Of a DNA stretch of 64,000 nt, positions 3,012 to 33,147 are shown piece after piece. Position 1 is the first letter of the stretch. Each line of letters opens with the position of its first letter. Source of the DNA: a virus. The translations under genes were made by a program, and so were the position numbers. The DNA is taken from positions 1 to 64,000 of the IMG/VR virus record IMGVR_UViG_3300036670_000258; one strand, written 5' to 3'. The notes below the pieces were generated by a model, which worked only from the letters and a program-made list of their open reading frames with translations, did not search any database and was not told the origin of the DNA.

Positions 3012-3032
3012 ATGTTCATTGCTAGTGAACAT
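3012..3032 (-). promoter_or_regulatory. small hairpin/operator in the gap before gene 41
   Basis: A 7-bp perfect inverted repeat (ATGTTCA / TGAACAT, 7-base loop) lies in the 99-bp gap between the 103-residue gene and gene 41. No T-tract follows on the minus strand, so it is not a convincing terminator. It could be an operator or an mRNA hairpin. Confidence 0.25.
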
Positions 3033-3055
3033 CATTAAATATTGAACACTGTGTC

Positions 3056-3367: not shown

Positions 3368-3368
3368 C

Positions 3369-3941
3369 TTATTCGTTTGTTAAATCTTCATCAAGTAAAG
3401 CTCCGATTTCGTTATCTATATTATCACTTTCTGTGTTGTAGTTAAAAAGAGGCTTAATGTGAATATTTATTTTTTCTAAGATTTCCTTTGTAAATACCTT
3501 TTCGCTGAAAAACTCAGAGTTAGTAACTACCTCATCTAAATGTTGACAAATCCATCCACGCGCCGTTGCCTTTGGTGTCTTAACTCCTTTTTCTATAGAG
3601 CCTCTTGTAATTCCACAGATATCCCATGTTGCATATTGCTCTAAACCAACATAAGGATTCATACCTTTAGTAAAATCTAAGTGAAACTTAATAGGATGTG
3701 GTTTAGCAAATCTATTTTTGTCTGGTTTTGCAGTTACAATAATACCAACCTTTTCAGTGCCATCCTTTAATTGTGCTTTAGTTAACATAAGAACAATAGA
3801 AGCGGCATACTCCGGACCTGTATTGTGATGTATTACTCCATTTTCAGTAATATAATGTTGAACATCTCTTACTGTTAAATCATGTACTTTAGTAGATTTT
3901 AACTCGGTTACACTCTTTATTTTTAATTTGTTTAATTGCAT
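3369..3941 (-). CDS. uvsX: UvsX recombinase C-terminal half with split-intein C-fragment
   Basis: Residues 1-40 are a C-intein: a Val-His-Asp-Leu-Thr-Val block F strand, and the terminus Ile-His-His-Asn, the canonical His-Asn splice end. The C-extein starts Thr-Gly-Pro-Glu-Tyr-Ala at residue 41, so the +1 nucleophile is Thr. It continues as the C-terminal core of a RecA-type recombinase, with an acidic tail (Leu-Leu-Asp-Glu-Asp-Leu). Joined to the N-half at 4936-5892, the spliced protein would be about 372 residues (T4 UvsX is about 390), restoring the Gly-Gly-Gly-Thr-Gly loop of UvsX. Its first codons overlap the end of the endonuclease gene by 53 bases. Splicing in trans is inferred; neither half contains the whole ATPase. 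Confidence 0.92.
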   Translation of the reverse strand: MQLNKLKIKSVTELKSTKVHDLTVRDVQHYITENGVIHHNTGPEYAASIVLMLTKAQLKDGTEKVGIIVTAKPDKNRFAKPHPIKFHLDFTKGMNPYVGLEQYATWDICGITRGSIEKGVKTPKATARGWICQHLDEVVTNSEFFSEKVFTKEILEKINIHIKPLFNYNTESDNIDNEIGALLDEDLTNE

Positions 3942-4881: not shown

Positions 4882-4935
4882 TTTTAGTAGTTTCAATTTT
4901 TTGTTAGATAATAGGTGGCTGTTAACCACCACCTG

Positions 4936-5892
4936 TTATATATATCTAGACACTTCATTGTTTTTTACTAAATCTCTTGCTAATATCCAATTATTGTCAT
5001 CTAATGGATCGTCTTCAACATTACCTGTAAAAAATCTATGATCTTCAGAACATTCTATGATCGTATTATCTTCAAATTCTATTCGGTATGTTTTCTTTTC
5101 AAACGTCCATGTGTTTTCTATTTCCATACCTCCATTTAATGTAAGAACTGAATCACCTTCTACTATATCTTCTATGTTCTTTAGGGTGTTATCGAACATT
5201 CTCACTTTAGATCCTGGAACTAAACAACCTCCACCTGCAACTTGTCTTGAAATAAAGTCTTGTGTTTGGTATGTGTGGTTAGTAAACAAAAATGGAATTT
5301 TTAAATCAGCAAGTGGAGTCATTATGATTCTAAAAATAGATTTTAAAATCTTGGATCTAGTCATATCCGCCTTTTCACTTCCACTAGTTGCATCGTCAAT
5401 TTCCTTTGCAGTCGCTAGATTACCTGCAGAATCAAGAATAATCATGATTTTTTGCACGTCTCCTCCCTTTCTTTTAACCTCTTGCATTTTTTGAGTAATA
5501 GTAGTAATCGAAGTTCTGAACGCCTGTACTGTATTTACTGGCTGATAATTTACTTTACTAATATCAATACCAAACTTTTTCATTTGGTCTTTATCTACTG
5601 CAGCTTCTGAATCATAATAAATAACATAATATCCCATGTTAATTGCTTCTCGGACTGAATTTAATGTAAGAAAGGTCTTTCCTGTACCAGATGGTCCTGC
5701 AATAGAACATGATCTGTTATTAGGCCATCCGCCCCATACTGAACCAGATAGGCATGCATTTAAATGATAATTCCCGGTGTGGATCCATTCTGTTACTTCA
5801 GAAAAGTTCGATTGGTCCATCACAGAACCTAAAGGATTTAATCCTGCTAGTTCTGCGTTTAAGTCATCGAATGTAAATTTATTTTTTGCCAT
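4936..5892 (-). CDS. uvsX: UvsX recombinase N-terminal half with split-intein N-fragment
   Basis: Residues 1-222 are the N-extein of a T4 UvsX-type strand-exchange protein: Walker A Gly-Pro-Ser-Gly-Thr-Gly-Lys-Thr at 66-73, a Walker B strand Ile-Ile-Leu-Asp-Ser-Ala-Gly, and Phe-Thr-Asn-His-Thr-Tyr before the DNA-binding loop. The extein stops at Val-Ala-Gly-Gly-Gly; residue 223 is Cys, starting a 96-residue N-intein (Cys-Leu-Val-Pro-Gly block A; Ser-Glu-Asp-His block B). The stop codon follows at once, leaving no endonuclease domain. The break falls in the Gly-rich loop L2 of RecA folds, a highly conserved site typical of inteins. UvsX would form the presynaptic filament with UvsY and gp32. 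Confidence 0.93.
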   Translation of the reverse strand: MAKNKFTFDDLNAELAGLNPLGSVMDQSNFSEVTEWIHTGNYHLNACLSGSVWGGWPNNRSCSIAGPSGTGKTFLTLNSVREAINMGYYVIYYDSEAAVDKDQMKKFGIDISKVNYQPVNTVQAFRTSITTITQKMQEVKRKGGDVQKIMIILDSAGNLATAKEIDDATSGSEKADMTRSKILKSIFRIIMTPLADLKIPFLFTNHTYQTQDFISRQVAGGGCLVPGSKVRMFDNTLKNIEDIVEGDSVLTLNGGMEIENTWTFEKKTYRIEFEDNTIIECSEDHRFFTGNVEDDPLDDNNWILARDLVKNNEVSRYI

Positions 5893-6072: not shown

Positions 6073-7269
6073 TTAAAATAATGATGTTGAATAAATTAAA
6101 TTTCTGTTTAGTGTATGTAATCCAACAGCCGAAAGAACTCGATTTAATGGATCAATTACACTTTTTTCAAATTGTAGTTCATAATCCACAGGTGGAGCAA
6201 TTTCATACGGATGAGCACCTGGCTGATACGCAAATATTTCACATGTAGTATGTTTACAATGATACAGTCTAAGCTTCTCACCATTACCAATCATTTTGTA
6301 CTTGTTCTTATATTTTGGATTGTTATTCATTAAAAAATTATAAAATCCTGCTGCCTTGACATTAGAAGGACATTTTAAGCCATATTGAAACTCAGTAGTG
6401 TCATCTAAAATATACTTATCAATATTATTTGTTCTTTTGTTAAAACATATTTCATCTATATTTGCAAGTTGAAATTCTTTTTTACATTGTTTTAAGTAAT
6501 CTACTAATCTTTTTAGGAGAGAAGCTGTTGGCTTTTCTGAAAGAATGAGTTTAAGAGCTTCAGTTAAATGCTTTCTTGCGATCGCAGGTGTTGAGCTTTG
6601 AATAGTATCGAATCCTATTGTTTTAATCTTTTTAAGAGAAGGATATCTGTCATCGGCTGATAATCGATCTTCCCATGCTATGTTTTGAAGATATTTCTTC
6701 TTAGCTAACCATATTCCGGAATACGCGATTGTTTCTAGTTCGAATACAAGAAAGTTTTCGGTATTAGTTGCCTCAGAATACTTTTCCATACACTTAAAAA
6801 TATAATCTTTAAGTCTAAAGTTATACAACTCCATAATAAACTTGTCGATTGACATTGAATCGCCATTCCACTCAATAGATTCGTACATTTCTTCAAATTG
6901 AACATATGCCGAATCGGTATCGATGTAAACAACAGATGGTCTTACTAATTTATTTTTAATGGAGATATTAAAATGAGAATGAACTTGCCTATCTTTAAGC
7001 CAAAATTCATGAAAATACTTATTAAGAATTTTTTCTGAATATAAAATAGCAGATTGACCCTGTAAAGTAATTGATTCTGCAATGTCTATGTTAAAAAAGT
7101 GAAACCATTTATTACCGAATGCACCATATATTGAGTTAAGCATTACCTTAACTGCTTGTTCATATGCCGTATATTTAGCTGACATCATTGAATAATGTTC
7201 AACCAATATTTTAATCTCCTCTTGTGTTAGATTTTCTTCTGGTTTTAGTATTAATTCATCTATTGTCAT
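6073..7269 (-). CDS. 43: gp43 DNA polymerase (family B), C-terminal half
   Basis: 398 residues covering fingers, the rest of the palm, and thumb. Motif B Lys-Val-Met-Leu-Asn-Ser-Ile-Tyr-Gly is at 41-49 and motif C Tyr-Ile-Asp-Thr-Asp-Ser near 113-118, followed by a Lys-Lys-Lys-Tyr segment. The exonuclease domain and motif A are encoded separately at 13985-15382. The combined length (about 863) fits T4 gp43 (898). Neither half carries intein sequence, so the halves must assemble non-covalently. A comparable natural split of gene 43 at the palm/fingers boundary is known in some Aeromonas T4-like phages. The C-terminus Ser-Thr-Ser-Leu-Phe is a plausible gp45-clamp-binding tail. It is followed directly by the 54-residue gene. 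Confidence 0.92.
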   Translation of the reverse strand: MTIDELILKPEENLTQEEIKILVEHYSMMSAKYTAYEQAVKVMLNSIYGAFGNKWFHFFNIDIAESITLQGQSAILYSEKILNKYFHEFWLKDRQVHSHFNISIKNKLVRPSVVYIDTDSAYVQFEEMYESIEWNGDSMSIDKFIMELYNFRLKDYIFKCMEKYSEATNTENFLVFELETIAYSGIWLAKKKYLQNIAWEDRLSADDRYPSLKKIKTIGFDTIQSSTPAIARKHLTEALKLILSEKPTASLLKRLVDYLKQCKKEFQLANIDEICFNKRTNNIDKYILDDTTEFQYGLKCPSNVKAAGFYNFLMNNNPKYKNKYKMIGNGEKLRLYHCKHTTCEIFAYQPGAHPYEIAPPVDYELQFEKSVIDPLNRVLSAVGLHTLNRNLIYSTSLF

Positions 7270-9455: not shown

Positions 9456-10442
9456 TTACGCTTCACAACTTGCACAATCTAAAATATCTCTAGCAAATGA
9501 TTGAGCTGAACCTTGACTAAATTGGTAGTAAAGTGTTTTGATTCCCTCTTCATGTGCATATAAATACAATTTATTAATGTCCTTTGCTGGAACACTAGGA
9601 TGAATCATTAAATTTAATGATTGTGACTGATCTATAAATTTCTGTCTCTGTGCTGCTTGTAAAACTATTTCTTTTGGTGTAATTTCAACAAAAGATTTAA
9701 AAACTTCCTTTGTTGGAAAGTCTAAGTGCTGAACACTTCCATCTCTTTTAAGAATTCCTTCCCATACGTCTGGTGTATTTAAGTTATACTTGATTAATTC
9801 ATTAATAAGAAATGGATTTTTGTATATTGTTTTTGACTTTGCTAAATCTTTAATAAAATAATTAGATTTAATAGGCTCTATTCCCATTGAAACTTGACCT
9901 AAAATAAATGAACTGCTTTTTGTCGGTGCGATGGCAACTAATGTTGTATTTGCATATCCATCTCTTAACGATCTATAACCTTTTTCATCGTGTAGCCACC
10001 TTGATGCTGCATCACTTCTTTCTTTTAAAGTTGAAAAAATATCATGGTTTAATGCCTTTGATTGCAAAGAGTCAAACGCTATTAATTTTGATTGAAACAG
10101 TGAATGATAACCAAGAACACCTAAACCTAATGCCCTATGTTGTTCAGCAAATCGGTGTGCTCTTGACATACCTGGCATTTTAAATGACTTCTTAATAAAT
10201 TCATCCATAACTGCGTTTAAAAACAATACATATGTTTCGATGGCATCTGTTTTTTTAATCTCATCCCAATGTAAAAGATTAATAGAACCTAAACAACATA
10301 CAAACGAATTAAAAGAATCCGTTGGAAGCTGAATCTCGCTACAGTTATGCACTAGTATATCGTCAGCATAAAAATTATGATTGTCCTCTACTGTGATATC
10401 GAAAACTGGAATTTCTTCTTCCAGATATTGTATTTTTAACAT
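9456..10442 (-). CDS. nrdA: NrdA ribonucleotide reductase large subunit, C-terminal half with split-intein C-fragment
   Basis: Residues 1-33 are a C-intein ending Ile-Leu-Val-His-Asn, the canonical His-Asn. The C-extein begins Cys-Ser-Glu-Ile-Gln-Leu-Pro: this Cys is both the +1 splice nucleophile and the thiyl-radical Cys of class I reductases (Asn-Leu-Cys-Ser-Glu). Further catalytic marks are Phe-Val-Cys-Cys-Leu-Gly-Ser-Ile-Asn (second active-site Cys), Thr-Leu-Tyr-Tyr-Gln (radical-transfer Tyr pair) and Cys-Ala-Ser-Cys at the C-terminus (reductant-docking Cys pair). Spliced NrdA would be about 541 residues, short for the family because the N-terminal ATP-cone is missing. The ATG overlaps the end of the HNH gene (ATGTTAA), suggesting coupled translation. 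Confidence 0.94.
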   Translation of the reverse strand: MLKIQYLEEEIPVFDITVEDNHNFYADDILVHNCSEIQLPTDSFNSFVCCLGSINLLHWDEIKKTDAIETYVLFLNAVMDEFIKKSFKMPGMSRAHRFAEQHRALGLGVLGYHSLFQSKLIAFDSLQSKALNHDIFSTLKERSDAASRWLHDEKGYRSLRDGYANTTLVAIAPTKSSSFILGQVSMGIEPIKSNYFIKDLAKSKTIYKNPFLINELIKYNLNTPDVWEGILKRDGSVQHLDFPTKEVFKSFVEITPKEIVLQAAQRQKFIDQSQSLNLMIHPSVPAKDINKLYLYAHEEGIKTLYYQFSQGSAQSFARDILDCASCEA

Positions 10443-11380
10443 ATTGTTATATTTTTGTTTTTAATTTCTTTTCTTGTTTTTAGATTATTATTGTAATATA
10501 CATTAAGAACTAATCCGGTTTTCTCAGATGCTAATCTATGTAATTCTTTACTACCTAATCCATTAAATCTAAATGAGCTAAATGATTTTGGTAATTTTTC
10601 ATACTTTTTAATTTTTCTATAGTGATTCGCAACCATTCTATATGGGAATAAAAATCCTAATCCCATTTCAACTGAAAATTCAGATACAATATTAACAAGC
10701 TCATCATCAGTAAATCCACTAAATCTTGGATTATTGTCACCTTTAGCGTCACCGATATTTGCAGCGTATTCGTCATAATTATCTTTATATTCATTAACTG
10801 TTATGTATTTCTTAACACCTGTTGTTTTACATGTTACTGATATATTACCAGTGGAATGATGTCTCCATTTTCCAGATAGAACGTTTGGATGATTTACATC
10901 AACAGAACCTATCATTTCAAGCGTTTCAGAATCTATGACAGGCATTGTACCCTTCCTTGCTTCAGATATGTTCTTTACACCCTCAGGGCTATGCCATGTG
11001 TTTTGCTTTCTAAACATTGATACGTTCTGTTTGAATGATGCGACTAACTTATTCTTTAATTTAGAACCCAGTACACTAGATACTTTTTTCTTATAAACAT
11101 ATCCATTAACCATTAATCTAATTGCTAAAAAATCGTTTCTATTATTATAAGCTTTAAATCTTAATAAATGTGCCATATAATGTTCCTCAGGTAACATAAC
11201 AACTAAATTAGATTCTAAATCTTTACCTCCATCGTGTCTAGGTACTATATGATGCTTTTCAGTATAAATATAGTCTACACTAAGTCTTTCGTCGTTGGCA
11301 TTCCTATTGCTTAATCGATCTTTAACATCAGTTGTTTTGCATAATTCACATAAGTTGTTGTATATTCGTTCATAGTTCAT
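10436..11380 (-). CDS. HNH homing endonuclease between the nrdA halves
   Basis: A 314-residue free-standing endonuclease. Near residues 40-75 it holds an HNH core: Glu-Lys-His-His-Ile-Val-Pro-Arg-His, then Leu-Glu-Ser-Asn-Leu-Val, then Glu-Glu-His-Tyr-Met-Ala-His. The rest is Lys/Asn-rich, with segments such as Gly-Lys-Trp-Arg-His-His-Ser that look like DNA-binding modules of T4 Seg/Mob-type enzymes. It occupies the exact gap between the split-intein halves of nrdA and overlaps the downstream half by 7 bases. It belongs to a different nuclease family from the uvsX-associated enzyme, so the two fractures probably arose from separate invasions. Confidence 0.85.
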   Translation of the reverse strand: MNYERIYNNLCELCKTTDVKDRLSNRNANDERLSVDYIYTEKHHIVPRHDGGKDLESNLVVMLPEEHYMAHLLRFKAYNNRNDFLAIRLMVNGYVYKKKVSSVLGSKLKNKLVASFKQNVSMFRKQNTWHSPEGVKNISEARKGTMPVIDSETLEMIGSVDVNHPNVLSGKWRHHSTGNISVTCKTTGVKKYITVNEYKDNYDEYAANIGDAKGDNNPRFSGFTDDELVNIVSEFSVEMGLGFLFPYRMVANHYRKIKKYEKLPKSFSSFRFNGLGSKELHRLASEKTGLVLNVYYNNNLKTRKEIKNKNITIC

Positions 11381-11444
11381 AAGATAAAGTTATTTTTATT
11401 ATATATCTAAATAATTTTACAACTTTATCTCAGAACATAAAACT

Positions 11445-12509
11445 TTAAGAATTAATAACTAATACATCTTCTTCTTTTAGATTTTTTGCCATAACATATC
11501 CTCTATTCGAAGTATATACTTTATGATCAGGTGTACATGTTATTGATTTTCCAGTAGCTTCATCTGTTATTTTTATAACTTTAGCTTTTTTGGAAGTCAT
11601 TGCACTATCTAATACTTTCTTGTATTCAATCTCAGAAGTTTCTATATTAAATGATTTAACTTCAAGCGTTGTATATAGATTATGTTGAAATAAACAATCT
11701 AACATTATGATAGGCATTGTCTTCTCAACACCGTCAACTCTTACTTTAACATCGGTCCAAGGCGCAACACATAAATTTGATGCAGTAATGTCAAGGCCTA
11801 ATTCCTTATAAGGAGAATTGTTATTACTGTTATCCTTAAACATAATGTAAGGAAAACCAAACTCGTTACGTCTTTGAATAACCTTTGCCCATATCTTGCG
11901 CTTATCTGCGTCACCTTCTTTCATTTCTAAAATCCATGCATCTGTTACTGTAACTCCATATTGTAGGTTTTGAATAGGATTTCCATCAGTTCCAATATCT
12001 AAAAATTCTAAAATATCTTTATGTTCGATTGGTAACCATACTGCACATGCACCTCTTCTTGCCTCTGATTGTTTACATACATCGACAGTTGTATCATACA
12101 TTCTAGCATAATGCACAGGTCCGTCTGCTGTTCCTCCTGTGGAAATTGGAGCTCCTCTTTCTCTAATGTTTCCTAAAAAAGCTGAAGTTCCTCCTCCATA
12201 TTTTGACATCATTCCTATTTCTCTACTTGCATTTAATATACTATCTAAGTTATCGTCTACATTACTTCCATAACAACTAACTGGAAGACCTTTGTCTTTA
12301 CCAAAATTAATCCAAACTGGAGTTGATAGGCTATAAAACCCTAAGTTCATATACTCTTCAAACTTTTTTGCAAATCCATCAATTTTTAGTATCTTTTCTG
12401 CATTATTAGATATATCCTTAATTCGTTGTTCGGGCGTTTCCTTAATATAGCCGCGCGAGAGGAACGTTCGACTATCTTCATTAAGCCAATAATTCTTTTC
12501 GTAATTCAT
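11445..12509 (-). CDS. nrdA: NrdA ribonucleotide reductase large subunit, N-terminal half with split-intein N-fragment
   Basis: Residues 1-246 are the N-extein of a class I reductase: Pro-Val-Ser-Cys-Tyr-Gly near 77-81 (first active-site Cys), Ser-Lys-Tyr-Gly-Gly-Gly-Thr-Ser, Arg-Arg-Gly-Ala-Cys-Ala and the terminal Ile-Thr-Ala-Ser-Asn-Leu. Residue 247, Cys, opens a 108-residue N-intein (Cys-Val-Ala-Pro block A; Cys-Thr-Pro-Asp-His block B) ending in a stop. The break falls just before the radical Cys, the most conserved point of the protein. Without trans-splicing neither half could work, so splicing is very likely required for dNTP supply. It lies downstream of nrdB and one small gene. Confidence 0.94.
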   Translation of the reverse strand: MNYEKNYWLNEDSRTFLSRGYIKETPEQRIKDISNNAEKILKIDGFAKKFEEYMNLGFYSLSTPVWINFGKDKGLPVSCYGSNVDDNLDSILNASREIGMMSKYGGGTSAFLGNIRERGAPISTGGTADGPVHYARMYDTTVDVCKQSEARRGACAVWLPIEHKDILEFLDIGTDGNPIQNLQYGVTVTDAWILEMKEGDADKRKIWAKVIQRRNEFGFPYIMFKDNSNNNSPYKELGLDITASNLCVAPWTDVKVRVDGVEKTMPIIMLDCLFQHNLYTTLEVKSFNIETSEIEYKKVLDSAMTSKKAKVIKITDEATGKSITCTPDHKVYTSNRGYVMAKNLKEEDVLVINS

Positions 12510-13984: not shown

Positions 13985-15382
13985 TTATTTAAGTCTTTTC
14001 TTTAATTTATCTGCGAGTGTAAAATATGTATATGATGTTTTTTTGTAATCCTTACGTTGATTATATAGATCACTTAATATTTTTCTAAGAATAGAGTCTT
14101 CGGTTTTGTAAACAACTCCATTGTCACATACAATAACACCTTTATCCTTTCTTCTTTCTTCTATTTCACTCTTGTAAATTTTTTCAATATATGCATCTGG
14201 TGAAATATTAAACTGACGCATTATTGAAGGATATAGTGAAGCAAAATCGAATGCACTTACTCCTTCGTAATATCCTAAAATAGGTTCCTTAACATAAGCT
14301 CCTGCGTATTGAGTATCTTTACTACTATCTGTTTTTTCTTCACTACCGATTCGCATTCCTTGTTCTGCTAGCTTTCTAGCCATAATTGCTTCAGTAACTG
14401 CCACTGGAGAACTTGCCTTATACAATGGCATATTTGTAATATTTGCAAGAGTTAAAAGAACTTCCATTGACTTTAGTTTTTGATCGATATAGTATACTAA
14501 TACTGAATCGACTACATTATAATATATGTATTTAACAAAGTTGTCACGGTACAGGTCTTGCAATGATCCTGTGAACTTGATTTTATTAACATTAAGGACT
14601 TGACTAGAAACATAATCAAGAGAATTGGATTCCTTTACTTTTACACTTCTATCATACTTGTCATATAATTGCATATAATCTAAAATTCCAAGGTGTAAAG
14701 GTCTTGAATCTCTGTTATCTACTGATTTTGTCCTTCCAATATCTTTAATATCTATCTGTAATCTTTTACATCTGTTTGTAATATATTGCCAGTCATAATT
14801 AATAAAATTCCAACCAGTCATCATCGGAAATTTAGGTAAAAACTTAAACAAGAATGTATATACCATATCATATTCGGAATTGAACTTATGATATTTGAAT
14901 TCCCAATCCATGTCAAAATCCTTAAAATACTCATTGGTATCATCTTGAATCTTTTGAATTTTATCAGATGCCATGTCTTCTAATCCAAGAACTATTGCCT
15001 TGCGATCCGGTGTAATTATTGAAAATGATAATATTCTACTTTTAGCCTCTTCTGCCTTTGGAAAGCCATCAACTATCTCGGTTTCAATATCCACGAAATA
15101 TGTTTTTGGCATATTATACGCAGTAAGATCTGCCTTATCTTTTTCAGATAGACTATCCAGAAAATAAAGAATGGAAAACTTGTTAAATTGTCTTCCATTT
15201 CCTAGTTTAACTGATCTACCATCCCAATTTTTAAATTGAGTACTAGCTGCCTTATCTTTGTCTTCACATACATACCAATTCTGAAAATTACTTACAGGAT
15301 ATTGTTTAAACGCTACTTCTCCTTCTGTATTATAATATGATATAATAACGTCTTTATCCCTTTGCTCAATGTCAAGAATCAT
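13985..15382 (-). CDS. 43: gp43 DNA polymerase (family B), N-terminal half with 3'-5' exonuclease
   Basis: 465 residues with the N-terminal domain, the proofreading exonuclease (Exo I Val-Asp-Ile-Glu at 97-100; Exo II Trp-Asn-Phe-Ile-Asn-Tyr-Asp; Exo III Tyr-Tyr-Asn-Val-Val-Asp) and palm motif A (Phe-Asp-Phe-Ala-Ser-Leu-Tyr-Pro-Ser-Ile near 380-390). It stops at Leu-Lys-Lys-Arg-Leu-Lys, just before the fingers and motif B. The missing part is encoded 6.7 kb downstream at 6073-7269. There is no intein half and no endonuclease gene adjoining the break, so this seems an older fracture followed by gene insertion or rearrangement. Both parts must be co-expressed to give active polymerase. Confidence 0.93.
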   Translation of the reverse strand: MILDIEQRDKDVIISYYNTEGEVAFKQYPVSNFQNWYVCEDKDKAASTQFKNWDGRSVKLGNGRQFNKFSILYFLDSLSEKDKADLTAYNMPKTYFVDIETEIVDGFPKAEEAKSRILSFSIITPDRKAIVLGLEDMASDKIQKIQDDTNEYFKDFDMDWEFKYHKFNSEYDMVYTFLFKFLPKFPMMTGWNFINYDWQYITNRCKRLQIDIKDIGRTKSVDNRDSRPLHLGILDYMQLYDKYDRSVKVKESNSLDYVSSQVLNVNKIKFTGSLQDLYRDNFVKYIYYNVVDSVLVYYIDQKLKSMEVLLTLANITNMPLYKASSPVAVTEAIMARKLAEQGMRIGSEEKTDSSKDTQYAGAYVKEPILGYYEGVSAFDFASLYPSIMRQFNISPDAYIEKIYKSEIEERRKDKGVIVCDNGVVYKTEDSILRKILSDLYNQRKDYKKTSYTYFTLADKLKKRLK

Positions 15383-25179: not shown

Positions 25180-26919
25180 TTAACCTAACGAGCTTGTTAG
25201 CATTCCAACTGCTGCACCATAATCTCCGTCTGATTTCTGTAAGATACCATCAATTACTTCTTGTGATTTGTCTTCATCAAATTCATCTCCAAATGCCTTC
25301 TTTAAAAGATTAACAGCGTAATCTTTAAATTCATCGTCAGATTTAATATCGGCCTCATTTACTAGAGATTCATAAACAGTGCCGAGTAAATCTTCTTTTT
25401 TGTCAAATTTCTTTGCAGATTTCCTAACATCTTGTAACATTGAAATAATATTATCCAGTGCCTTAATATCTAGATCAGAACCATTGTTTACCGCAGAAGT
25501 TAGTTGTTGCATACGATTATCTAGAACGTATAGGTCGTTACTTATTACTTTTTTTGGTAGTCTGTAAAAGGATTCTTTGATAGACTCTTCAACCTTAAAT
25601 GTTTTACCTTCAAAATCGAATTCATCATCGCCTGCCTCTTTAGCCTTACGTACCGCATCTCCAAATGCGTTACCTTCTTTTAATTCTTCTAACTTAAATT
25701 TCTTTGGATTTTCTTTAATCTTCTCAGTAGCAATCGCAATTAATTTATCCATTGAATAGTCATTAGACCCTATAACTTCACCATTAAGAGTATATTGCAC
25801 ATAACCTCCTGATTTCTTTTTTTGACCAAGCTTAACATCGGATTGTTTAAGATCATATCCGTTGGCCTTTAATGCAGTTTGGATTGCGGATTTTTCAAAA
25901 CCTTCGTTGGCAATAGACTCTTCAATAAATCCTATCAAGTAATCATCACCCCAAAGATCCGAAATCATTTTTTCAAGATCTTTACGCTTTCCCGTGTATT
26001 CATATTCACCAAAATCTCCACCTACACCAGTGTCTTTCATTTTGATGTTATTCTTTTTAATAAATTTTTGAAGTGTTTTATCGTCAGGATCCGTAGTATC
26101 AAGTAATACTGTGGATTCTGATAATGCAGTTTGGATTGCGGATTTTTCAAAACCTTCGTTGGCAATAGACTCTTCAATAAATCCTATCAAGTAATCATCA
26201 CCCCAAAGATCCGAAATCATTTTTTCAAGATCTTTACGCTTTCCCGTGTATTCATATTCACCAAAATCTCCACCTACACCAGTGTCTTTCATTTTGATGT
26301 TATTCTTTTTAATAAATTTTTGAAGTGTTTTATCGTCAGGATCCGTAGTATCAAGTAATACTGTGGATTCTGATAATGCATTACGGTCGAAGTTAAAAAT
26401 AACTGATTTTACATTTACATCATATTCCTTTATTAATTCACCAACCTTATTATACATATTATTTAATGCAGTAGATTTTAATTGCGTATATCCGTTTTTA
26501 AGAGTAATTTCTGTTGTATTATATTTCGCAGTGTAGTCATCCTTTAATGCTTCATTAAAAATAGATTCTTCTACTTTATATGTTTTTCCATCAAATTCGA
26601 ATTCAGTTTCTCCGGCCTCTTTAGCCTTACGTACCGCATCTCCAAATGCGTTACCTTCTTTTAATTTTTCTCTAGGTGGAGTTGGAGGATCTACTTTTTC
26701 TAGAGAACCACTCGCAAACATTTTATCTATAATTCCATTACGCTGTACTTCTTCTAATCCTTCTAATGAGGTTAATCCCATCTCGTCAAGAATAGATGCC
26801 AATTTGTTTACTGTTTCTTGTCTTTTTGTATTGTTTGCTTCTCTTAATTTTACAGTAGATTCCTGTGATTTAACCTCAGAAAAACTCTTAAATGAAGAAA
26901 TTTTGTTAATGTTAGCCAT
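25180..26919 (-). CDS. modular repeat protein, putative internal head protein (579 aa)
   Basis: The N-terminus has Phe-Lys-Ser-Phe-Ser-Glu and then Leu-Arg-Glu-Ala at about 25-29, fitting a targeting motif plus prohead-protease site. Two diverged 35-residue modules (near 85-120 and 413-448) begin Leu-Lys-Glu-Gly-Asn-Ala-Phe-Gly-Asp-Ala, each with a Leu-Lys-Glu|Gly site at its start, and continue Lys-Ala-Lys-Glu-Ala-Gly, Gly-Lys-Thr, Lys-Val-Glu-Glu-Ser. Between them, an 84-residue segment is present twice without change. Like the scaffold-associated or internal proteins of T4-like phages it is acidic, Lys/Glu-rich and without enzymatic motifs. The exact function is unknown. Confidence 0.7.
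   Translation of the reverse strand: MANINKISSFKSFSEVKSQESTVKLREANNTKRQETVNKLASILDEMGLTSLEGLEEVQRNGIIDKMFASGSLEKVDPPTPPREKLKEGNAFGDAVRKAKEAGETEFEFDGKTYKVEESIFNEALKDDYTAKYNTTEITLKNGYTQLKSTALNNMYNKVGELIKEYDVNVKSVIFNFDRNALSESTVLLDTTDPDDKTLQKFIKKNNIKMKDTGVGGDFGEYEYTGKRKDLEKMISDLWGDDYLIGFIEESIANEGFEKSAIQTALSESTVLLDTTDPDDKTLQKFIKKNNIKMKDTGVGGDFGEYEYTGKRKDLEKMISDLWGDDYLIGFIEESIANEGFEKSAIQTALKANGYDLKQSDVKLGQKKKSGGYVQYTLNGEVIGSNDYSMDKLIAIATEKIKENPKKFKLEELKEGNAFGDAVRKAKEAGDDEFDFEGKTFKVEESIKESFYRLPKKVISNDLYVLDNRMQQLTSAVNNGSDLDIKALDNIISMLQDVRKSAKKFDKKEDLLGTVYESLVNEADIKSDDEFKDYAVNLLKKAFGDEFDEDKSQEVIDGILQKSDGDYGAAVGMLTSSLG
25870..26380. repeat. exact 252-bp tandem duplication flanked by 7-bp microhomology
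   Basis: 25870-26121 and 26122-26373 appear identical, with the 7-base TAATGCA at the start of each copy and once more at 26374-26380. The unit is 84 codons, so the frame is kept. The lack of any difference I can see indicates a very recent event, or an assembly artefact. Confidence 0.9.
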
Positions 26920-26953: not shown

Positions 26954-27889
26954 TTATATATCTCCATCAAATTCAACACTCTTAACTGTAAATGGAAACT
27001 TTTCTTGTGTATAAATAGCCTGTCTTGCCTTTCCATGTTTATATAAATAGTTATCCCATTCTATAGATCTGATATTATCTACAAAATCTATAATTAAAAC
27101 CTTTTCCTTTGATGCATGTTGTCTTAATCCTCTTCCGATTGATTGTCGTATAATAACTTCAGATTTAAATGATTCTGTAAAAAATATGTTATGTATTTTT
27201 TTTATAGAAATTCCTGTTGAAAAGGTTCCAAACGAAGCTACTATTACAATTTCTTCTCCTGCCTCCATTTTCTTTTTATACTCTTCTCGTATATCAGATG
27301 AAGTTCCACCATCCACATAGAATACTCTTTTATTACTTTCTTGTCTAAGTTTTTCATAAAGTCGTTGGCCATGCTCAATTCTGTGAAAAAGAACTAAACT
27401 ATTTCTTGGAACCTTAGCAATAACAGTAGATATAAAGTTAAGTCTGGCATTGCTAGTAATTACGAAATTTTGTTCTAAAGAAAAAACATCTTTATTTTCA
27501 TATTTATTCTGAGCCAATTCCATAAATGCAGTTCTTTGCTTAGGAGTTGCATAATTCATTTCAATAACCTTTACAATACATTTTGCGATATAACCTTCCT
27601 TTTGTAAAAAGCTAGCTTTAACCTCAGTAATTAGAGGTCCAGTTTGGCTCATAAGTGTAAGTCGATCTAATGTATCTGCTTTTGGAATTGTACCTGAAAG
27701 TCCGAATTTGTAATTTGCATTTACACATTTTGAAAGAATTTCCTTTATCGATGCTCCTTTGGCTTTATGGCAATTTGAAACGTTTAACCCATTTGCAAAA
27801 TAATTGTGGTTTAAACCGTCTTCTGATTTTATTCTAAGATTATAAACAGTATCGCTATATTCTATTTTTTTAATATTATTAATCTTCAT
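26954..27889 (-). CDS. uvsW: UvsW helicase C-terminal half with split-intein C-fragment
   Basis: Residues 1-39 are a C-intein (Thr-Val-Tyr-Asn-Leu-Arg block F; Asn-His-Asn-Tyr-Phe-Ala; end Val-Ser-Asn). The penultimate residue is Ser rather than the usual His. The C-extein starts Cys-His-Lys-Ala-Lys-Gly, completing helicase motif II (Asp-Glu-Cys-His) with the N-half at 32164. Motif III Leu-Ser-Gly-Thr and motif VI Gln-Ser-Ile-Gly-Arg-Gly-Leu-Arg-Gln follow. The spliced protein would be about 503 residues, the size of T4 UvsW. UvsW is a superfamily 2 helicase that regresses forks, migrates Holliday junctions and removes R-loops. Unlike uvsX and nrdA, the partner half is 4.3 kb upstream. Confidence 0.92.
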   Translation of the reverse strand: MKINNIKKIEYSDTVYNLRIKSEDGLNHNYFANGLNVSNCHKAKGASIKEILSKCVNANYKFGLSGTIPKADTLDRLTLMSQTGPLITEVKASFLQKEGYIAKCIVKVIEMNYATPKQRTAFMELAQNKYENKDVFSLEQNFVITSNARLNFISTVIAKVPRNSLVLFHRIEHGQRLYEKLRQESNKRVFYVDGGTSSDIREEYKKKMEAGEEIVIVASFGTFSTGISIKKIHNIFFTESFKSEVIIRQSIGRGLRQHASKEKVLIIDFVDNIRSIEWDNYLYKHGKARQAIYTQEKFPFTVKSVEFDGDI

Positions 27890-27945
27890 ATAAAATGTTT
27901 TAGTAATCTTTTTAATTTTAAAAAATAAAAGACTCGTAGATATAA

Positions 27946-28587
27946 TTATTTTATGACATTAACCTTAACATTAACATTAGACATGGGAATACCTACTTTG
28001 GCATTTTCATCTAAGTTTACAGTTACCTTTTTAGATAATTTTATTTTAAAAGTGTCAGACCATGGAATAAATAGATTTCCGTCTGCAACAACTTCGAGCT
28101 TAATATTTCCAGTATCTCCTTCATTAAGAATTCCTAGTTTTTTTATAGGAACAATGCATTTGTTATTTACAATATTTCCTGGAAATACAAGAGACCATTC
28201 TGTTGTCTCAATAATAATTCTAGCGTAAGCTTCTTCAATGGATGCACCTTCGATTGATATATCACATATGAATTCCTCATTTATATCCTTATACAGGGTG
28301 TAATTTGTGTCATCTTCTATAATTTCAAGAGTTATTTCCTCTGAAATTTTATCTTTTATGTATTCTATTATATCCTCTTGGACAACTATATCATCATGTG
28401 TTGCTATATCCTCTTGGACAACTATATCATCATGTGTTGCTATATCCTCTTGGACAACTATATCTTTTTCTTTTTCAATAGTATCATCAATTAGTATTGA
28501 CTCGTTGTTAGGTAAAATCTGAATAGAATTATCGATTTCATTATTATTCATAAAGTCGATAAAACTAAAAACATCAAGTTTTTTCAT
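27946..28587 (-). CDS. conserved beta-sandwich-like phage protein with N-terminal 12-residue repeats (213 aa)
   Basis: It begins Met-Lys-Lys-Leu-Asp-Val-Phe-Ser-Phe-Ile-Asp-Phe-Met-Asn, vaguely like the targeting motif seen in other genes. Residues 42-73 hold an acidic 12-residue repeat, Asp-Ile-Val-Val-Gln-Glu-Asp-Ile-Ala-Thr-His-Asp, present twice and then partly a third time. The C-terminal 120 residues are beta-rich, with Glu-Ala-Tyr-Ala-Arg-Ile-Ile-Ile-Glu, Trp-Ser-Leu-Val-Phe-Pro-Gly and Ile-Pro-Trp-Ser-Asp, a domain I associate with T4-like phage proteins of unknown role. It is the first gene upstream of the uvsW C-half. Confidence 0.65.
   Translation of the reverse strand: MKKLDVFSFIDFMNNNEIDNSIQILPNNESILIDDTIEKEKDIVVQEDIATHDDIVVQEDIATHDDIVVQEDIIEYIKDKISEEITLEIIEDDTNYTLYKDINEEFICDISIEGASIEEAYARIIIETTEWSLVFPGNIVNNKCIVPIKKLGILNEGDTGNIKLEVVADGNLFIPWSDTFKIKLSKKVTVNLDENAKVGIPMSNVNVKVNVIK
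28369..28464. repeat. 36-bp tandem repeat in the 213-aa gene
   Basis: A unit starting TATATCCTCTTGGACAACTA occurs at 28369, 28405 and 28441, the third copy being 24 bases long. The two full units look identical and encode 12 residues each, so copy number can vary without a frameshift. Confidence 0.9.
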
Positions 28588-28634
28588 GATTTAAATTATT
28601 TTTTATTTAATATATATATTAATATTAAAATTTG

Positions 28635-28991
28635 TTATTTTCGTATGTTATTAGAAAAGCCTATATTTATTTTAATTCCTTCCTTTATTCCTTGTTTAAT
28701 GAATATTTCAAAATCAGATCCTAGAACTTTAATATTTTCATTGATTTCTCTTTTTTCTTGATACTCGATACCTTTAAATTTACAATAAAGTTCTAGAAAT
28801 CGTTTTGTCTTGGTGTCACCTATATCTTTTTGTAGTCTCTGGCCTGGATTACCATATGCAACATATCCTCCCGATCCGGCTACAATATTGTTAACTTCAA
28901 TTAAAACAGAAACATCTGACCATTTCTGACCGGATGTTTCATTCCATTTTTTAATAAGTTCTTTCCATTTAAAATATCGCTTTTGTGGCAT
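28635..28991 (-). CDS. hypothetical protein (118 aa)
   Basis: Unrecognised. It begins Met-Pro-Gln-Lys-Arg-Tyr-Phe-Lys-Trp-Lys-Glu-Leu and holds a Gly-rich loop Ala-Gly-Ser-Gly-Gly-Tyr-Val-Ala-Tyr-Gly-Asn-Pro-Gly near 38-50, then Lys-Arg-Phe-Leu-Glu-Leu-Tyr-Cys. The mixture of a basic N-terminus and Gly-rich loop does not identify a family. It is located 15 bases downstream of the 693-residue tail-like gene. Confidence 0.55.
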   Translation of the reverse strand: MPQKRYFKWKELIKKWNETSGQKWSDVSVLIEVNNIVAGSGGYVAYGNPGQRLQKDIGDTKTKRFLELYCKFKGIEYQEKREINENIKVLGSDFEIFIKQGIKEGIKINIGFSNNIRK

Positions 28992-29006
28992 AAAACGTTT
29001 TAATTA

Positions 29007-31088
29007 TTAAGTCATATTTATGTAACCGATACCTGAACCAGTAATAGCACTAATAGCGGTTGTGTTAAACTCTAGGTTACTATAAGCTCCGATATGAGTT
29101 CTACCAATCTGGTCTCCGATTGCAGCTGTACCTACCATACTTAATTGAGGACCCTCTGGTAAACGGAATCTAATTGGGGTTTCAATAGCTCCAATACCTT
29201 GTTGTCTGTATGTTACCATAAGTATTTTCGCAGGTAAACCTGTACCAAATGATACCCAAACATTTGCAAGTGGTGCTGTTGATGATAGTAACAATGTCTG
29301 AATAGATTTTAAATATGCAACTGCTGATGCTGATGTGGCTAATGCTGCAACTGTTACAGTTGAAGTAAATATTGCTGCTTTTGCTACACTTGATGCAAAT
29401 AACTTTCCTAGTATTGTGTTATTTGCAACATAACTTGCCATTGCTGGAGCTGAATTTACTATTAATCCAATTGCAACTGCGTTTCCAATTGCCACATCAA
29501 TGTTAGAATTACCACCAAGTGCTGTTAAAGCCCCTGTATTAGCAACAAATCCTGTCATAATAAGACTATTTCCCGCCACTATACTAAAGTTTGCACTTGT
29601 AGCAAGGGTAAGCATTGCATCTGAATTAGTTGCTAGTACTTCTGATGCTCCTGCGTTTGCATTTACTAGTGTTAAGGCTGATGCTTTAGCTATGATTTGA
29701 GTAAAAGTTGACATTATTAAAGTTATTCCTGCTAAGTTATACGTTATTGCAAAAGCATTATCTTCGTAGTAAGGGCTATCTTTAAACTGACTCCATCTTG
29801 TAATATTTGCATTTATAGCATTTATTGAAGTTGGTCTATTAGACACCGCTGTCATTGCATTTTCGGAATTAAAAATAATATCTCTTATTCCTACTGTAGA
29901 GGTTGCGCCAACTAAAATTCCAACTGATATTGAATTAGATGCTAGTATAGGCATTCCTATAGGGTCATTAATGGCAAGAGTTAAATTAGTGTGAGTAGAT
30001 AAAGCCGTTACTCCTGCTGAATTACCAGCAAGTGCCGTCATTATTACTGAATTACCTTTTACAAGTGCAAAGTTTGTGCTTGTAGCTATATTAACCATTG
30101 CAGTATTATTACTCGCTAAGGCTGCCATAATAACTGTATTACCTGTTACGATAGAAAGATTAGTGCTTGCACCTAATGTTAACATTGCAGCACTGCTTGA
30201 AGCTAATGCTTCTGATGCTCCTTCATTTGAGTTTACTGTGGCTAGCGCAACTGCATTATTTATAATATCATCGATTGTCGCAAATGATGTAGGGTTAACT
30301 CCTGCAAGATTTGCAATTGTGTTTTTTAAATTTGCTACAAAGAATGTGCTTGCTTTGTAAGAAGCTCTTGCAACACTATTGGCATATATCGTATCTACTG
30401 CTATTTTACTATTAGAAATAGCAGCTACAGACAATGACTTTGAAGATAATTCATACATAGCTATAGCACTGTCTGCACAAGCACTCATACATCTTTGAGA
30501 ATTTGTTATATAACTTAAAGCATTTTGGTTAGAAGATATTAACTCCATTCCAATACTATTAGTAGATGTTCTTAAAACCAAATCATCGTCTTCAATAACA
30601 GCTCTAATCGCATTAGTACTAGCTATAATCCGTGACATTGCTACAGGATCTGCAAATACAAAGTTTCTATCAGGGTAAAGTACTAAATCTAATCCTGCAA
30701 AAACAGCGGCAGCATAACCAAGATTATCTACAGCATAGGGACTTTGTAAGTATATGTCCCACGCCACCTGATTGTTTATAATTTTAGTTAAGGTTGGTAA
30801 GTTAAGCGATACATTAAGCATTGCTAAAGGGCTTAAAGCCATTGCATGTGCAGCTGTTGAATTATTTATACTAGCTGCTCCAAATACAGAGTCTGTTGCT
30901 ATCGGGCTTGCTATGATTGCAGAAATTGCTAATTGGTTTGCTGCTAAACTTCTCGTTTCACTCCTCATTGACAGCGCTTCTTCAAACCCTACTCGTGTGG
31001 CAGGGTTTGTTAGTCTTGTTTGAAATTCTGATCCAAGTACTGTTCCAGATTTTACTGCTGTTAACAGTCTTCTTGTTGATAATTGCAT
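29007..31088 (-). CDS. Ala/Asn-rich repetitive tail-fibre-like protein (693 aa)
   Basis: The N-terminus Met-Gln-Leu-Ser-Thr-Arg-Arg-Leu-Leu-Thr-Ala-Val-Lys-Ser-Gly-Thr-Val-Leu-Gly-Ser looks like an attachment domain. Residues about 50-600 are degenerate repeats of the form Ala-Leu-Ala-Ser-Asn-Ser-x-Ala-Met-x-x-Leu-Ala-Thr-Ser, probably a regular helical or solenoid shaft. The last 90 residues (Gly-Thr-Gly-Leu-Pro, Phe-Arg-Leu-Pro-Glu-Gly-Pro) resemble a compact tip domain. The gene is clearly less AT-rich than its surroundings because of Ala codons. It lies with other fibre-like genes between the two uvsW halves. Tail fibre or fibril function is inferred. Confidence 0.65.
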   Translation of the reverse strand: MQLSTRRLLTAVKSGTVLGSEFQTRLTNPATRVGFEEALSMRSETRSLAANQLAISAIIASPIATDSVFGAASINNSTAAHAMALSPLAMLNVSLNLPTLTKIINNQVAWDIYLQSPYAVDNLGYAAAVFAGLDLVLYPDRNFVFADPVAMSRIIASTNAIRAVIEDDDLVLRTSTNSIGMELISSNQNALSYITNSQRCMSACADSAIAMYELSSKSLSVAAISNSKIAVDTIYANSVARASYKASTFFVANLKNTIANLAGVNPTSFATIDDIINNAVALATVNSNEGASEALASSSAAMLTLGASTNLSIVTGNTVIMAALASNNTAMVNIATSTNFALVKGNSVIMTALAGNSAGVTALSTHTNLTLAINDPIGMPILASNSISVGILVGATSTVGIRDIIFNSENAMTAVSNRPTSINAINANITRWSQFKDSPYYEDNAFAITYNLAGITLIMSTFTQIIAKASALTLVNANAGASEVLATNSDAMLTLATSANFSIVAGNSLIMTGFVANTGALTALGGNSNIDVAIGNAVAIGLIVNSAPAMASYVANNTILGKLFASSVAKAAIFTSTVTVAALATSASAVAYLKSIQTLLLSSTAPLANVWVSFGTGLPAKILMVTYRQQGIGAIETPIRFRLPEGPQLSMVGTAAIGDQIGRTHIGAYSNLEFNTTAISAITGSGIGYINMT

Positions 31089-31105
31089 AATTTTTTATTT
31101 TGGTT

Positions 31106-31714
31106 TTACTTTGTTACAAAAAAAGATGTTAATCTAGTTGTTTCATCTTCATCAAGTTCATCTCTAAGGTTTCTATCATCTGTTGACCATGCTGATATTA
31201 GATCAGGGGCTGCTATATTTAAAAGCCATTGTCCTATCGGTAAAAGGCTTATAGGATCAACTGCCGTGAATGATGTTTCGTCATCATCAGGCTCGGTGAA
31301 TGAATCTACAAAAATTAAGAGACCAATTCCTTCAATTACTGCTGAATCATCAGCCATAGGTAAAGGTTGTATTGGATATCTTAATATGCCTCGGTTTTCA
31401 TATGTTAAAGTTTCTAATTCGGTTTTACTTCTTGCGATAACAAGTGCCTCGCCTCCAATAATGGATTTACCATTTATAGTAACTAAATCTGTTATAAACA
31501 CCTTTTTATTTAATTCTTCAAGTGTTAGATCACTTATCGGTTTTTCAGCGTCAGATGTATTATTAACCCTGTCGAGTTCGTTATTTACTCTTGATATAAT
31601 ATCATTAAATAGTGCTTTGGATTCATCTATTGAAAGTTTTTGAATTACTACCTGATTAATCAAGTCAGTTGTGGCAGAGGTTAGTGCTGCAATTAATTGT
31701 TCAGTTGTTGCCAT
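31106..31714 (-). CDS. tail-fibre-associated structural protein (202 aa)
   Basis: A helical N-terminal half with Asn-Thr-Ser-Asp-Ala-Glu-Lys-Pro-Ile-Ser, then Thr-Ile-Asn-Gly-Lys-Ser-Ile-Ile-Gly-Gly near residue 100. This Asn-Thr-Ser-Asp-Ala-x-Lys-Pro plus Ile-Asn-Gly-Lys-Ser-Ile order is common in tail-fibre and tail-needle proteins of many phages. The C-terminus is acidic, ending Thr-Arg-Leu-Thr-Ser-Phe-Phe-Val-Thr-Lys. It is followed by the 693-residue protein and preceded, with no gap, by the 69-residue gene; the set is probably one fibre module. Confidence 0.6.
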   Translation of the reverse strand: MATTEQLIAALTSATTDLINQVVIQKLSIDESKALFNDIISRVNNELDRVNNTSDAEKPISDLTLEELNKKVFITDLVTINGKSIIGGEALVIARSKTELETLTYENRGILRYPIQPLPMADDSAVIEGIGLLIFVDSFTEPDDDETSFTAVDPISLLPIGQWLLNIAAPDLISAWSTDDRNLRDELDEDETTRLTSFFVTK

Positions 31715-31924
31715 TTATCTATTCAATATTGTTATTAATAACGTTTGTGTATTAATTAAGTTTGTGCTTACTATAAATAAAGGTTCTATCGCCCTATTTT
31801 CAGATAAAGCAATAGCATTAGATATAAGAGAATTGACATTACCCTTAAGGGCAGTACATGTTTCCAATAAGCTAGTAGTCTGTGATGTTAAATTATCTAT
31901 TGCTTCTTCAATTGTCGCTGCCAT
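31715..31924 (-). CDS. small helical structural protein (69 aa)
   Basis: A single amphipathic helical protein, Met-Ala-Ala-Thr-Ile-Glu-Glu-Ala, with many Leu, Thr, Ser and Asn and no charged clusters. Its start overlaps the end of the upstream gene by 17 bases, and its stop adjoins the next start, showing tight coupling with the fibre-like genes. It may be a short trimerisation or chaperone segment. The function is unknown. Confidence 0.55.
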   Translation of the reverse strand: MAATIEEAIDNLTSQTTSLLETCTALKGNVNSLISNAIALSENRAIEPLFIVSTNLINTQTLLITILNR

Positions 31925-32126
31925 ATGATTCTAAAATATATTTTGCTAGTATCTTTTGTGTTTGTATTAAATTTGATGCCTGATTAACTTGATAATATAA
32001 TGGCGTACCTATTGGCAGGCTATTACCTTTTCCATCAAAATATGATCCATTTCCATCAGTTTGCACTAATCGTTGAAATGTAAGAGATACTTCAGATTCT
32101 GTTAAATCGAATTCAGGGTTTTGCAT
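31908..32126 (-). CDS. tail-fibre N-terminal-like small protein (72 aa)
   Basis: The frame is open up to an ATG at 32183, but that start lies inside the uvsW N-half. The ATG at 32126, preceded by an A-rich leader, is more likely. The protein has Phe-Gln-Arg-Leu-Val-Gln-Thr-Asp-Gly-Asn-Gly-Ser-Tyr-Phe-Asp-Gly, a pattern typical of the first residues of phage tail-fibre proteins, and ends in a helix. It begins the fibre-like cluster that sits between the uvsW halves. Confidence 0.6.
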   Translation of the reverse strand: MQNPEFDLTESEVSLTFQRLVQTDGNGSYFDGKGNSLPIGTPLYYQVNQASNLIQTQKILAKYILESYGSDN

Positions 32127-32163
32127 TTTATTATTTATGTTATTAATATTATATATCCTATTT

Positions 32164-33147
32164 TTATATACAAAATATATCATCGGTATATGATAATTGA
32201 TCCACTCTCTTATATACCCCTGATGTTAATTTAACTCTATGATTTCCTGTTATTTTAATAATAGATCCATCTTCCATTTCTAACTCGAACATTTGATTTC
32301 CTTTCGATAAATCATGATATACAAATTCAACTTCTCTATCTTCAATTTCTAAAGTTTTATCATTAGTTGTTTTAACATATTCTCCTGCCTTTATTTCATT
32401 TACCTTTTTATAGGAGCCATTGCTCATTTTTATTAGAGTATCGGGATGTATACACTCGTCAACTATTACTGCATCAAATTCTGAAAAGTATGCAGCATCC
32501 TTTTTAATTAAAGATTGATAAGTACCTATAATTATATTTTTATTAGGTTTAATATCTTGACCAGCAAATATTTGTTGAATTCTTAGATCTATTTTGTTTT
32601 TGTAATTGTAATCGTGAAAATCTTCATGAGCCTGTACTACTAATGAAACGTTAGGAACTATAAATAGTATTTTAGTTGCCTTGTTATGTTCTAGTATATA
32701 TGCTACTGTTAAAAAACTTATTAGTGTTTTACCAGCTGAAGTTGCAAGTTCAGCTAAACATTTTCTAAACTTTAAAATATTAAAAGCAGCCTCAATCTGG
32801 TAATCACGTGGTGTAAATTTTTCAGAGTCTTTAAAGAATTCTAAAGACCATTTTTCAAATACTTCTGGATTAATATTAGGGTCTATTAATCTTTTTATTC
32901 CTTCAATTTTAAGTTCAAATCTATACTCCTTGCAAATTGACATGACATATTGCCAGAGTCCGGCAGGAATCCATTTATCATCTTTAATGTATGATACATA
33001 TCCATCCCATATTCCACGCTTTACTAAAGGGTGAAACCTCCAGCTGTCAATTCTTTTTGTTAGAGATATTTTAATCTGCTCTAACTCTAGTTCAGTAGCA
33101 TCGTCAATTCTTAAAAATTGATTATCTTCAGTTAATGTTAAAATCAA
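32164..33147 (-). CDS. uvsW: UvsW helicase N-terminal half with split-intein N-fragment
   Basis: Residues 1-231 are the N-extein: an N-terminal UvsW accessory domain, then the Q-motif-like Phe-Thr-Pro-Arg-Asp-Tyr-Gln, motif I Ala-Thr-Ser-Ala-Gly-Lys-Thr at about 132-138, Ile-Val-Pro-Asn motif Ia and Gly-Thr-Tyr-Gln-Ser-Leu motif Ic. It stops at Val-Ile-Val-Asp-Glu, halfway through motif II. Residue 232, Cys, starts a 96-residue N-intein (Cys-Ile-His-Pro-Asp-Thr-Leu; Thr-Gly-Asn-His block B). The C-half lies 4.3 kb downstream on the same strand, so both are minus-strand genes but far apart. It follows uvsY closely, as in T4 where uvsY and uvsW are neighbours. Confidence 0.92.
   Translation of the reverse strand: MILTLTEDNQFLRIDDATELELEQIKISLTKRIDSWRFHPLVKRGIWDGYVSYIKDDKWIPAGLWQYVMSICKEYRFELKIEGIKRLIDPNINPEVFEKWSLEFFKDSEKFTPRDYQIEAAFNILKFRKCLAELATSAGKTLISFLTVAYILEHNKATKILFIVPNVSLVVQAHEDFHDYNYKNKIDLRIQQIFAGQDIKPNKNIIIGTYQSLIKKDAAYFSEFDAVIVDECIHPDTLIKMSNGSYKKVNEIKAGEYVKTTNDKTLEIEDREVEFVYHDLSKGNQMFELEMEDGSIIKITGNHRVKLTSGVYKRVDQLSYTDDIFCI

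What the first reader, a model, noticed from the sequence alone, without database searches (positions are those of the whole stretch)
26954..33147. uvsW halves with split intein separated by a 4.3-kb tail-gene island
The break is inside helicase motif II, between Asp-Glu and Cys-His. The intein halves remain at the ends, but between them lie six genes: fibre-like proteins, two unknowns, and a repeat protein, and no endonuclease. Either an endonuclease was replaced by tail genes, or tail genes were inserted at the old site. The C-intein ends Ser-Asn instead of His-Asn, which may give unusual splice kinetics.
Basis: partly seen in the sequence, partly recalled or inferred. Interest (0 to 1): 0.75.

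Follow-up and report, generated by a model that had tools for sequence, protein, structure and literature searches.

The report
Split-intein uvsW holding tail-fibre operon
In this phage the DNA-repair helicase gene uvsW is cut in two by a split intein, and the gap that in relatives holds a selfish DNA-cutting gene holds a set of host-recognition tail genes instead; the insert looks to have spread recently between related phages, which suggests a new use for a known kind of mobile element.

Summary
uvsW is split between Asp-Glu and Cys-His by a split intein (96 + 39 aa), with six tail-type genes and no endonuclease between the halves. The same arrangement occurs in near kin and in a distant phage (L023, exteins ~57% identical). 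Among 46 distinct forms of this intein at this site, nearly all hold one PD-(D/E)XK-type endonuclease, as do cultured phages S16 and PM2; trees make the endonuclease the common, probably older, content. A 2.3-kb fibre segment inside the cassette is 85-90% identical at DNA level in unrelated phage types. Among near kin the insert is less diverged than the surrounding exteins (0.8 and 2.1% against 5%; P=1e-14 and 9e-7), with a sharp break at the C-intein/extein junction, as at uvsX, which keeps its endonuclease-type ORF. So the insert moves or is exchanged as a unit; an endonuclease acting in trans is possible but unproven. Ser-Asn is typical of this intein family, not peculiar. One relative has intact uvsW with a homologous operon directly downstream, so relocation of the C half remains a rival. 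Trans-splicing is inferred, not shown.

The parts
32455..33147 (-). uvsW N-extein (231 aa, helicase motifs I to II, ends Val-Asp-Glu)
32164..32454 (-). N-intein, 96 aa plus stop: Cys1, block B T-G-N-H
32150..32157 (-). GATATATA promoter-like motif just before the p72 start; a like motif precedes the first gene of the insert in L006, L023 and (endonuclease) L004
   Evidence: modest enrichment; not tested functionally
31908..32126 (-). p72, small tail-type protein (ORF open back to 32183)
31715..31924 (-). p69, small tail-type protein
31106..31714 (-). p202, tail-fibre-associated protein; its C-terminal part belongs to the exchanged fibre segment
29007..31088 (-). p693, repeat-rich helical solenoid; PHROG tail fibre, weakly similar to PhiCh1/phiH repeat fibre proteins and, by fold, to a phage receptor-binding protein (7qlr)
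28635..28991 (-). p118, tail-operon protein of unknown fold (model not usable, pLDDT 39)
27946..28587 (-). p213, variable acidic repeat N-terminus plus conserved structural-type domain
27773..27889 (-). C-intein, 39 aa, ends Ser-Asn before Cys+1
26954..27772 (-). uvsW C-extein (272 aa, helicase C domain)
29030..31350 (.). 2.3-kb fibre segment shared at mostly 75-90% DNA identity with unrelated phage types (boundaries approximate)
27773..28991 (.). right block (p118, p213, C-intein): 98.7-100% identical among kin outside the p213 repeat, breaking off at the C-intein/C-extein junction

Best explanation
This is a fractured gene. A split intein sits at the DE|CH motif of uvsW; the two half-proteins are made separately and most likely joined by protein trans-splicing, so the gap between the halves is neutral for UvsW. 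The homing endonuclease that usually fills the gap has been replaced by a host-recognition (tail-fibre) operon with its own promoter-like element. The intein plus operon has been passed between related phages as a unit. The fibre segment inside is swapped further with unrelated phages that probably share hosts. How the unit moves without its own endonuclease is inferred: either an endonuclease from a co-infecting phage cuts intact uvsW (trans or collaborative homing), or ordinary phage recombination moves it, helped by selection on the fibre. Shown: architecture, family, common endonuclease content, fibre exchange, insert younger than flanks. Inferred: splicing, replacement event, route of movement.
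For: All catalytic positions (Cys1, T-G-N-H, Asn39, Cys+1) are kept in both cassette lineages; intein dN/dS between window and L023 is about 0.32 (N) and 0.22 (C), i.e. purifying. Among 46 distinct forms the gap is 831-1291 bp with one endonuclease, or short without one, and is a 4.3-kb operon only in the window clade and L023. Extein tree: L023 is sister to L181 (endonuclease); window and L004 (endonuclease) nest among intact forms. The +1 residue is Cys in 46 of 47 split forms but Thr in 139 of 143 intact loci, so Cys+1 goes with the intein. Insert against exteins: W-L003 13/1732 vs 77/1512, P=1e-14; W-L006 42/1970 vs 79/1512, P=9e-7; gap plus C-intein 0/173 against 18-20/200 in the first 200 nt of the C-extein. 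Same sign at uvsX with its endonuclease-type ORF: 0-5/1374 vs 80-84/1141. No uvsW-type endonuclease elsewhere in the 161-kb record, with working positive controls.
Against: No splicing was tested. The intein tree does not group window with L023 and does not exclude it (AU p 0.21), so one capture or two stays open. L111 carries a homologous operon just after an intact uvsW, which allows relocation of the C half instead of capture. The left half of the insert is only slightly younger than its flank (N-intein vs N-extein P=0.03-0.05). The kin contigs have neighbouring accession numbers and may come from one place.
Confidence: 0.6

Rival explanations
1. The tail operon was already the neighbour of uvsW (order uvsW-operon-p579) and the C half, free because of the fracture, was relocated past it while the endonuclease was lost. 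No capture by the intein took place.
For: L111 has intact uvsW, then an operon with the same core gene order, then p579 and p429. The window has N half, operon, C half, p579.
Against: In the other sampled intact clusters with enough downstream sequence, p579 or its neighbours follow uvsW with no operon. L111 operon proteins are only 53-59% identical to the window's although the uvsW exteins are 81-84%, so the L111 operon is not the window's direct vertical counterpart. The L111 gap between p213 and p579 is 74 nt with no recognisable C-half remnant.
Confidence: 0.22
2. The low divergence of the insert reflects ordinary recombination under selection for new fibres, using p118, p213 and the C-intein as shared flank; there is no homing-type movement at all. 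(Not exclusive of the best explanation, which leaves the route open.)
For: Fibre segments are exchanged among unrelated phages. The most homogeneous block is the right flank of the fibre. No endonuclease is present.
Against: The break falls at the C-intein/C-extein junction, as it does at uvsX, where an endonuclease-type ORF is present.
Confidence: 0.35
3. The split is a dead relic: the halves do not splice and UvsW is lost or works as two non-covalent parts.
For: No splicing data for this intein family were found in the papers searched.
Against: Catalytic residues are intact and under purifying selection in two diverged endonuclease-free lineages, and both exteins are nearly free of amino-acid change among kin.
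Confidence: 0.05
4. Chimeric metagenome assembly.
For: The window is a single IMG/VR record.
Against: Independent contigs L003, L006, L002 and the diverged L023 show the same junctions.
Confidence: 0.01

Closest known systems
Fractured genes: split inteins with a free-standing endonuclease between the halves (Dassa et al. 2009, seen here only as a citation; e.g. PolB of phage MIJ3, PMC6892783)
   Same: Host gene split at a conserved motif, intein halves at the ends, canonical split position; the same intein family in this very site carries an endonuclease in many phages
   Different: The endonuclease is absent and a six-gene tail operon takes its place
uvsW split intein of Salmonella phage S16 (gp114/114.1/115) and Proteus phage PM2
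   Same: Same gene, same site, homologous intein (N part 38-44%, C part 44-51% identical)
   Different: They hold the PD-(D/E)XK-type endonuclease (annotated 'hypothetical protein') and end Ala-His-Asn
HEG-islands (Barth et al. 2023, PMC10448857)
   Same: Phage structural genes as cargo of a homing locus, conserved beyond the genome average
   Different: There, endonuclease genes bracket the cargo; here none does, and the intein halves do the bracketing
Invertible repeat-fibre modules of PhiCh1, phiH1 and ChaoS9 (PMC6471424)
   Same: p693 shows weak sequence similarity and similar predicted structure
   Different: No integrase and no inverted second copy seen here

Membership tests
Fractured gene with split intein | Host gene in two ORFs, each with one intein half at the same point | tested here: met
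Fractured gene with split intein | Intein catalytic residues: Cys/Ser 1, TxxH block B, C-terminal Asn, Cys/Ser/Thr +1 | tested here: met
   Cys1, T-G-N-H, Asn39, Cys+1
Fractured gene with split intein | Free-standing homing endonuclease between the halves | tested here: not met
   Six tail-type ORFs, none endonuclease; no such endonuclease in the held 161-kb record
Fractured gene with split intein | Protein trans-splicing | not testable with these tools
   needs an assay
Intein (Pfam PF14890 / PF01079) | Score above the curated cut-off | tested here: inconclusive
   24.0 of 35.8 bits and 27.2 of 29.7 bits for the N half; membership rests on motifs and the family alignment
UvsW helicase | Full-length similarity of the joined product to T4 UvsW | tested here: met
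   2OCA E 9e-65, residues 12-498
HEG-island | Endonuclease genes flank the cargo | tested here: not met
   No endonuclease gene borders this cassette
Invertible repeat tail-fibre module | Repeat-containing fibre related to PhiCh1/phiH | tested here: met
   tblastn 25% identity E 4e-6; Foldseek E 2e-9 on a model of modest confidence
Invertible repeat tail-fibre module | Integrase and inverted second fibre copy | tested here: not met
   Not among the cassette genes; only one p693 match in the record

The most novel reading that the evidence does not exclude
A split intein has become a carrier for host-recognition genes: a mobile unit without endonuclease that places a fibre operon inside a core gene at no cost, is kept harmless by trans-splicing, and is driven into intact uvsW by endonucleases of co-infecting phages.
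Probability: 0.3. Interest if true: 0.82.

Novelty: new variant of a known kind. Interest (0 to 1): 0.62.

Why it matters
It would be the first case I could find in which a fractured gene carries useful phage genes instead of its endonuclease, and it links homing sites with the spread of host-range genes. It also gives a large comparative set at one site: intact gene, cis mini-intein, split with endonuclease, split with operon. With that set the gain, loss and reuse of inteins can be tested directly. The claim of novelty rests on an open-access library only.

Tried and rejected
Ser-Asn as an oddity: rejected, family norm (the scan patterns favour it, so 40/47 is an upper estimate). p118 as a hidden endonuclease: homologues sit at the end of tail operons in other phages and the fold model was unusable. 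A co-conversion tract of foreign extein around the site: not seen; the window is closest to the intact L084 group on both sides. Common origin of the two cassette inteins by tree: unresolved. Host through prophages: p693 not found in the genome collection. Isolate with the fibre: only PhiCh1, distant. Group I intron at the second break of L004: no Rfam match. Reading the Dassa paper: not held.

Full report
OBSERVATION. The window lies in a 161,411-base IMG/VR record. On the minus strand uvsW is in two ORFs. The N half (32164-33147) ends in a 96-residue N-intein starting at Cys after ...VIVDE, and the C half (26954-27889) starts with a 39-residue C-intein ending in Asn before CHKAKG. Joined, the exteins match T4 UvsW (2OCA, E 9e-65). 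Between them are p72, p69, p202, p693, p118 and p213, all on the same strand, and no endonuclease.

THE SAME SITE ELSEWHERE. Scans for both halves returned mostly intact uvsW: 143 of the 236 loci classed, duplicates included. Four contigs share the window's arrangement: L006; L003 (p69, p202 and most of p693 deleted, the last 39 residues of p693 left); L002 (cut by the contig end); and the distant L023, whose exteins are 56-58% identical but whose six genes have the same order. Scans with the intein halves found many more split forms. In 46 distinct forms the gap almost always holds one endonuclease ORF (gap 831-1291 bp). A few are cis mini-inteins (L177, L261, L266) or short gaps without endonuclease. 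Only the window clade and L023 hold the tail operon. The endonuclease has the conserved core RS[ST]WxA...E..R.PY...YI.DF...EI[KR]P, matches PHROG 15427 'endonuclease' and weakly the TnsA-like N domain; it is best called PD-(D/E)XK-type. Cultured phages have it: in Salmonella phage S16 and Proteus phage PM2 the 'hypothetical protein' between two 'DNA helicase' genes is this endonuclease, and the helicase halves carry the intein halves. A Prevotella Lak phage gives the same intein and endonuclease signals.

HISTORY. In the extein tree the window sits with intact L084 and L009 (100/98), L004 (endonuclease) and L175 (endonuclease) sit separately among intact forms, and L023 (operon) is sister to L181 (endonuclease). 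The L023 intein is also sister to the L181 intein. Endonuclease content is therefore the common and probably ancestral state, and the operon is derived. Whether there was one capture or two is open: the inteins of window and L023 do not group, but their grouping is not rejected (AU p 0.21); the shared gene order argues for one. Intact loci in this search have Thr at the +1 position in 139 of 143 cases, split forms Cys in 46 of 47, so Cys+1 goes with the intein.

THE CASSETTE. Between window and L023 most cassette genes are as diverged as the exteins (54-69% identity), but the end of p202 and all of p693 rise to mostly 75-90% DNA identity (85% protein), with sharp edges near 31,350 and 29,030. 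The same 2.3-kb segment is shared with L156/L158/L163, L159 and the siphovirus-like L161; no uvsW was found in the records of the first four, nor in the L161 locus. p693 is a PHROG tail fibre, modelled as a helical solenoid (pLDDT 69), with weak similarity to repeat-containing tail-fibre proteins of PhiCh1 and phiH and, by fold, to a phage receptor-binding protein. It is best read as a receptor-binding fibre; that is inference. p72 is preceded by a GATATATA-like motif in window, L006 and L023, as is the endonuclease in L004, which suggests separate transcription of the insert.

RECENT MOVEMENT. Against L003, the insert differs at 13 of 1732 aligned positions and the exteins at 77 of 1512 (P 1e-14). 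Against L006, leaving out p202 and p693, it is 42 of 1970 against 79 of 1512 (P 9e-7). The gap plus C-intein has 0 of 173 differences in both, and the next 200 nt of C-extein have 18 and 20. The window's two other fractured genes give a control. At uvsX, which keeps an endonuclease-type ORF, the insert differs at 0-5 of 1374 and the exteins at 80-84 of 1141. At nrdA with its HNH gene, the insert is nearly identical in L006 (4 of 1349 against 111 of 1702), while L003 has another allele. So the endonuclease-free uvsW insert bears the mark seen at homing loci. No uvsW-type endonuclease is encoded elsewhere in the held record (positive controls). Trans homing, known for T4 mobE and the nrdB intron, and collaborative homing (reviewed in PMC2988022) are precedents; HEG-islands (PMC10448857) are a precedent for structural cargo. 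Fibre-driven recombination could give part of the same signal.

THE MAIN RIVAL. L111 has an intact uvsW (DETH), directly followed by an operon with the same core order (p72-like, two further ORFs, p69-like, p202, two p693-like, p118, p213), then p579 and p429. Other sampled intact relatives have p579 or its neighbours after uvsW. The L111 operon proteins are only 53-59% identical to the window's although its uvsW is 81-84% identical, so it is not simply the ancestral version. Still, relocation of the C half past a neighbouring operon cannot be excluded.

LIMITS. Everything is computed from metagenome contigs. Scans use short exact peptide patterns and return at most 80 loci, so counts are not population frequencies, and the C-intein pattern favours Ser-Asn. 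Trans-splicing, promoters and fibre function were not tested. Insert totals were summed by feature, and uvsX/nrdA boundaries were approximate to within about 80 nt (exact positions).

Noticed in passing
3369-5892: uvsX is fractured too: N half with N-intein (from 5226), an endonuclease-type ORF (3889-4932, no Pfam match) and C half starting with a C-intein ending His-Asn before Thr+1. The insert is almost identical in kin (0-5/1374) while exteins differ by 7%.
   Followed up: partly
9456-12509: nrdA is fractured by a split intein with an HNH endonuclease (10436-11380) between the halves; kin L003 carries a clearly different allele of the insert (about 82-93%).
   Followed up: partly
6073-7269 and 13985-15382: What look like the two parts of a family B DNA polymerase (gp43) lie 6.7 kb apart with a sliding-clamp-like ORF, nrdA and an nrdB-like ORF between; no intein motif is evident.
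   Followed up: no
25180-26919: The 579-aa ORF holds a near-exact internal repeat of about 250 bp and changes length strongly among kin (334 to 661 aa).
   Followed up: no
L004 11100-12350; also L196, L214, L220: A second interruption lies in the uvsW C-extein near residue 182, with an HNH-type ORF; the joining mechanism is unclear and Rfam finds no intron.
   Followed up: partly
L284 (S16) 2192-4918 and L285 (PM2) 2189-4921: In cultured phages S16 and PM2 the two 'DNA helicase' genes are a split-intein uvsW with an endonuclease between; the annotation does not say so.
   Followed up: yes
L177, L178, L261, L266: The same intein exists as a continuous mini-intein in frame, so cis and trans forms occur at one site.
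   Followed up: partly
L029, L030: Intact uvsW with DECH instead of the usual DETH; could be a scar of intein loss or the older state.
   Followed up: no
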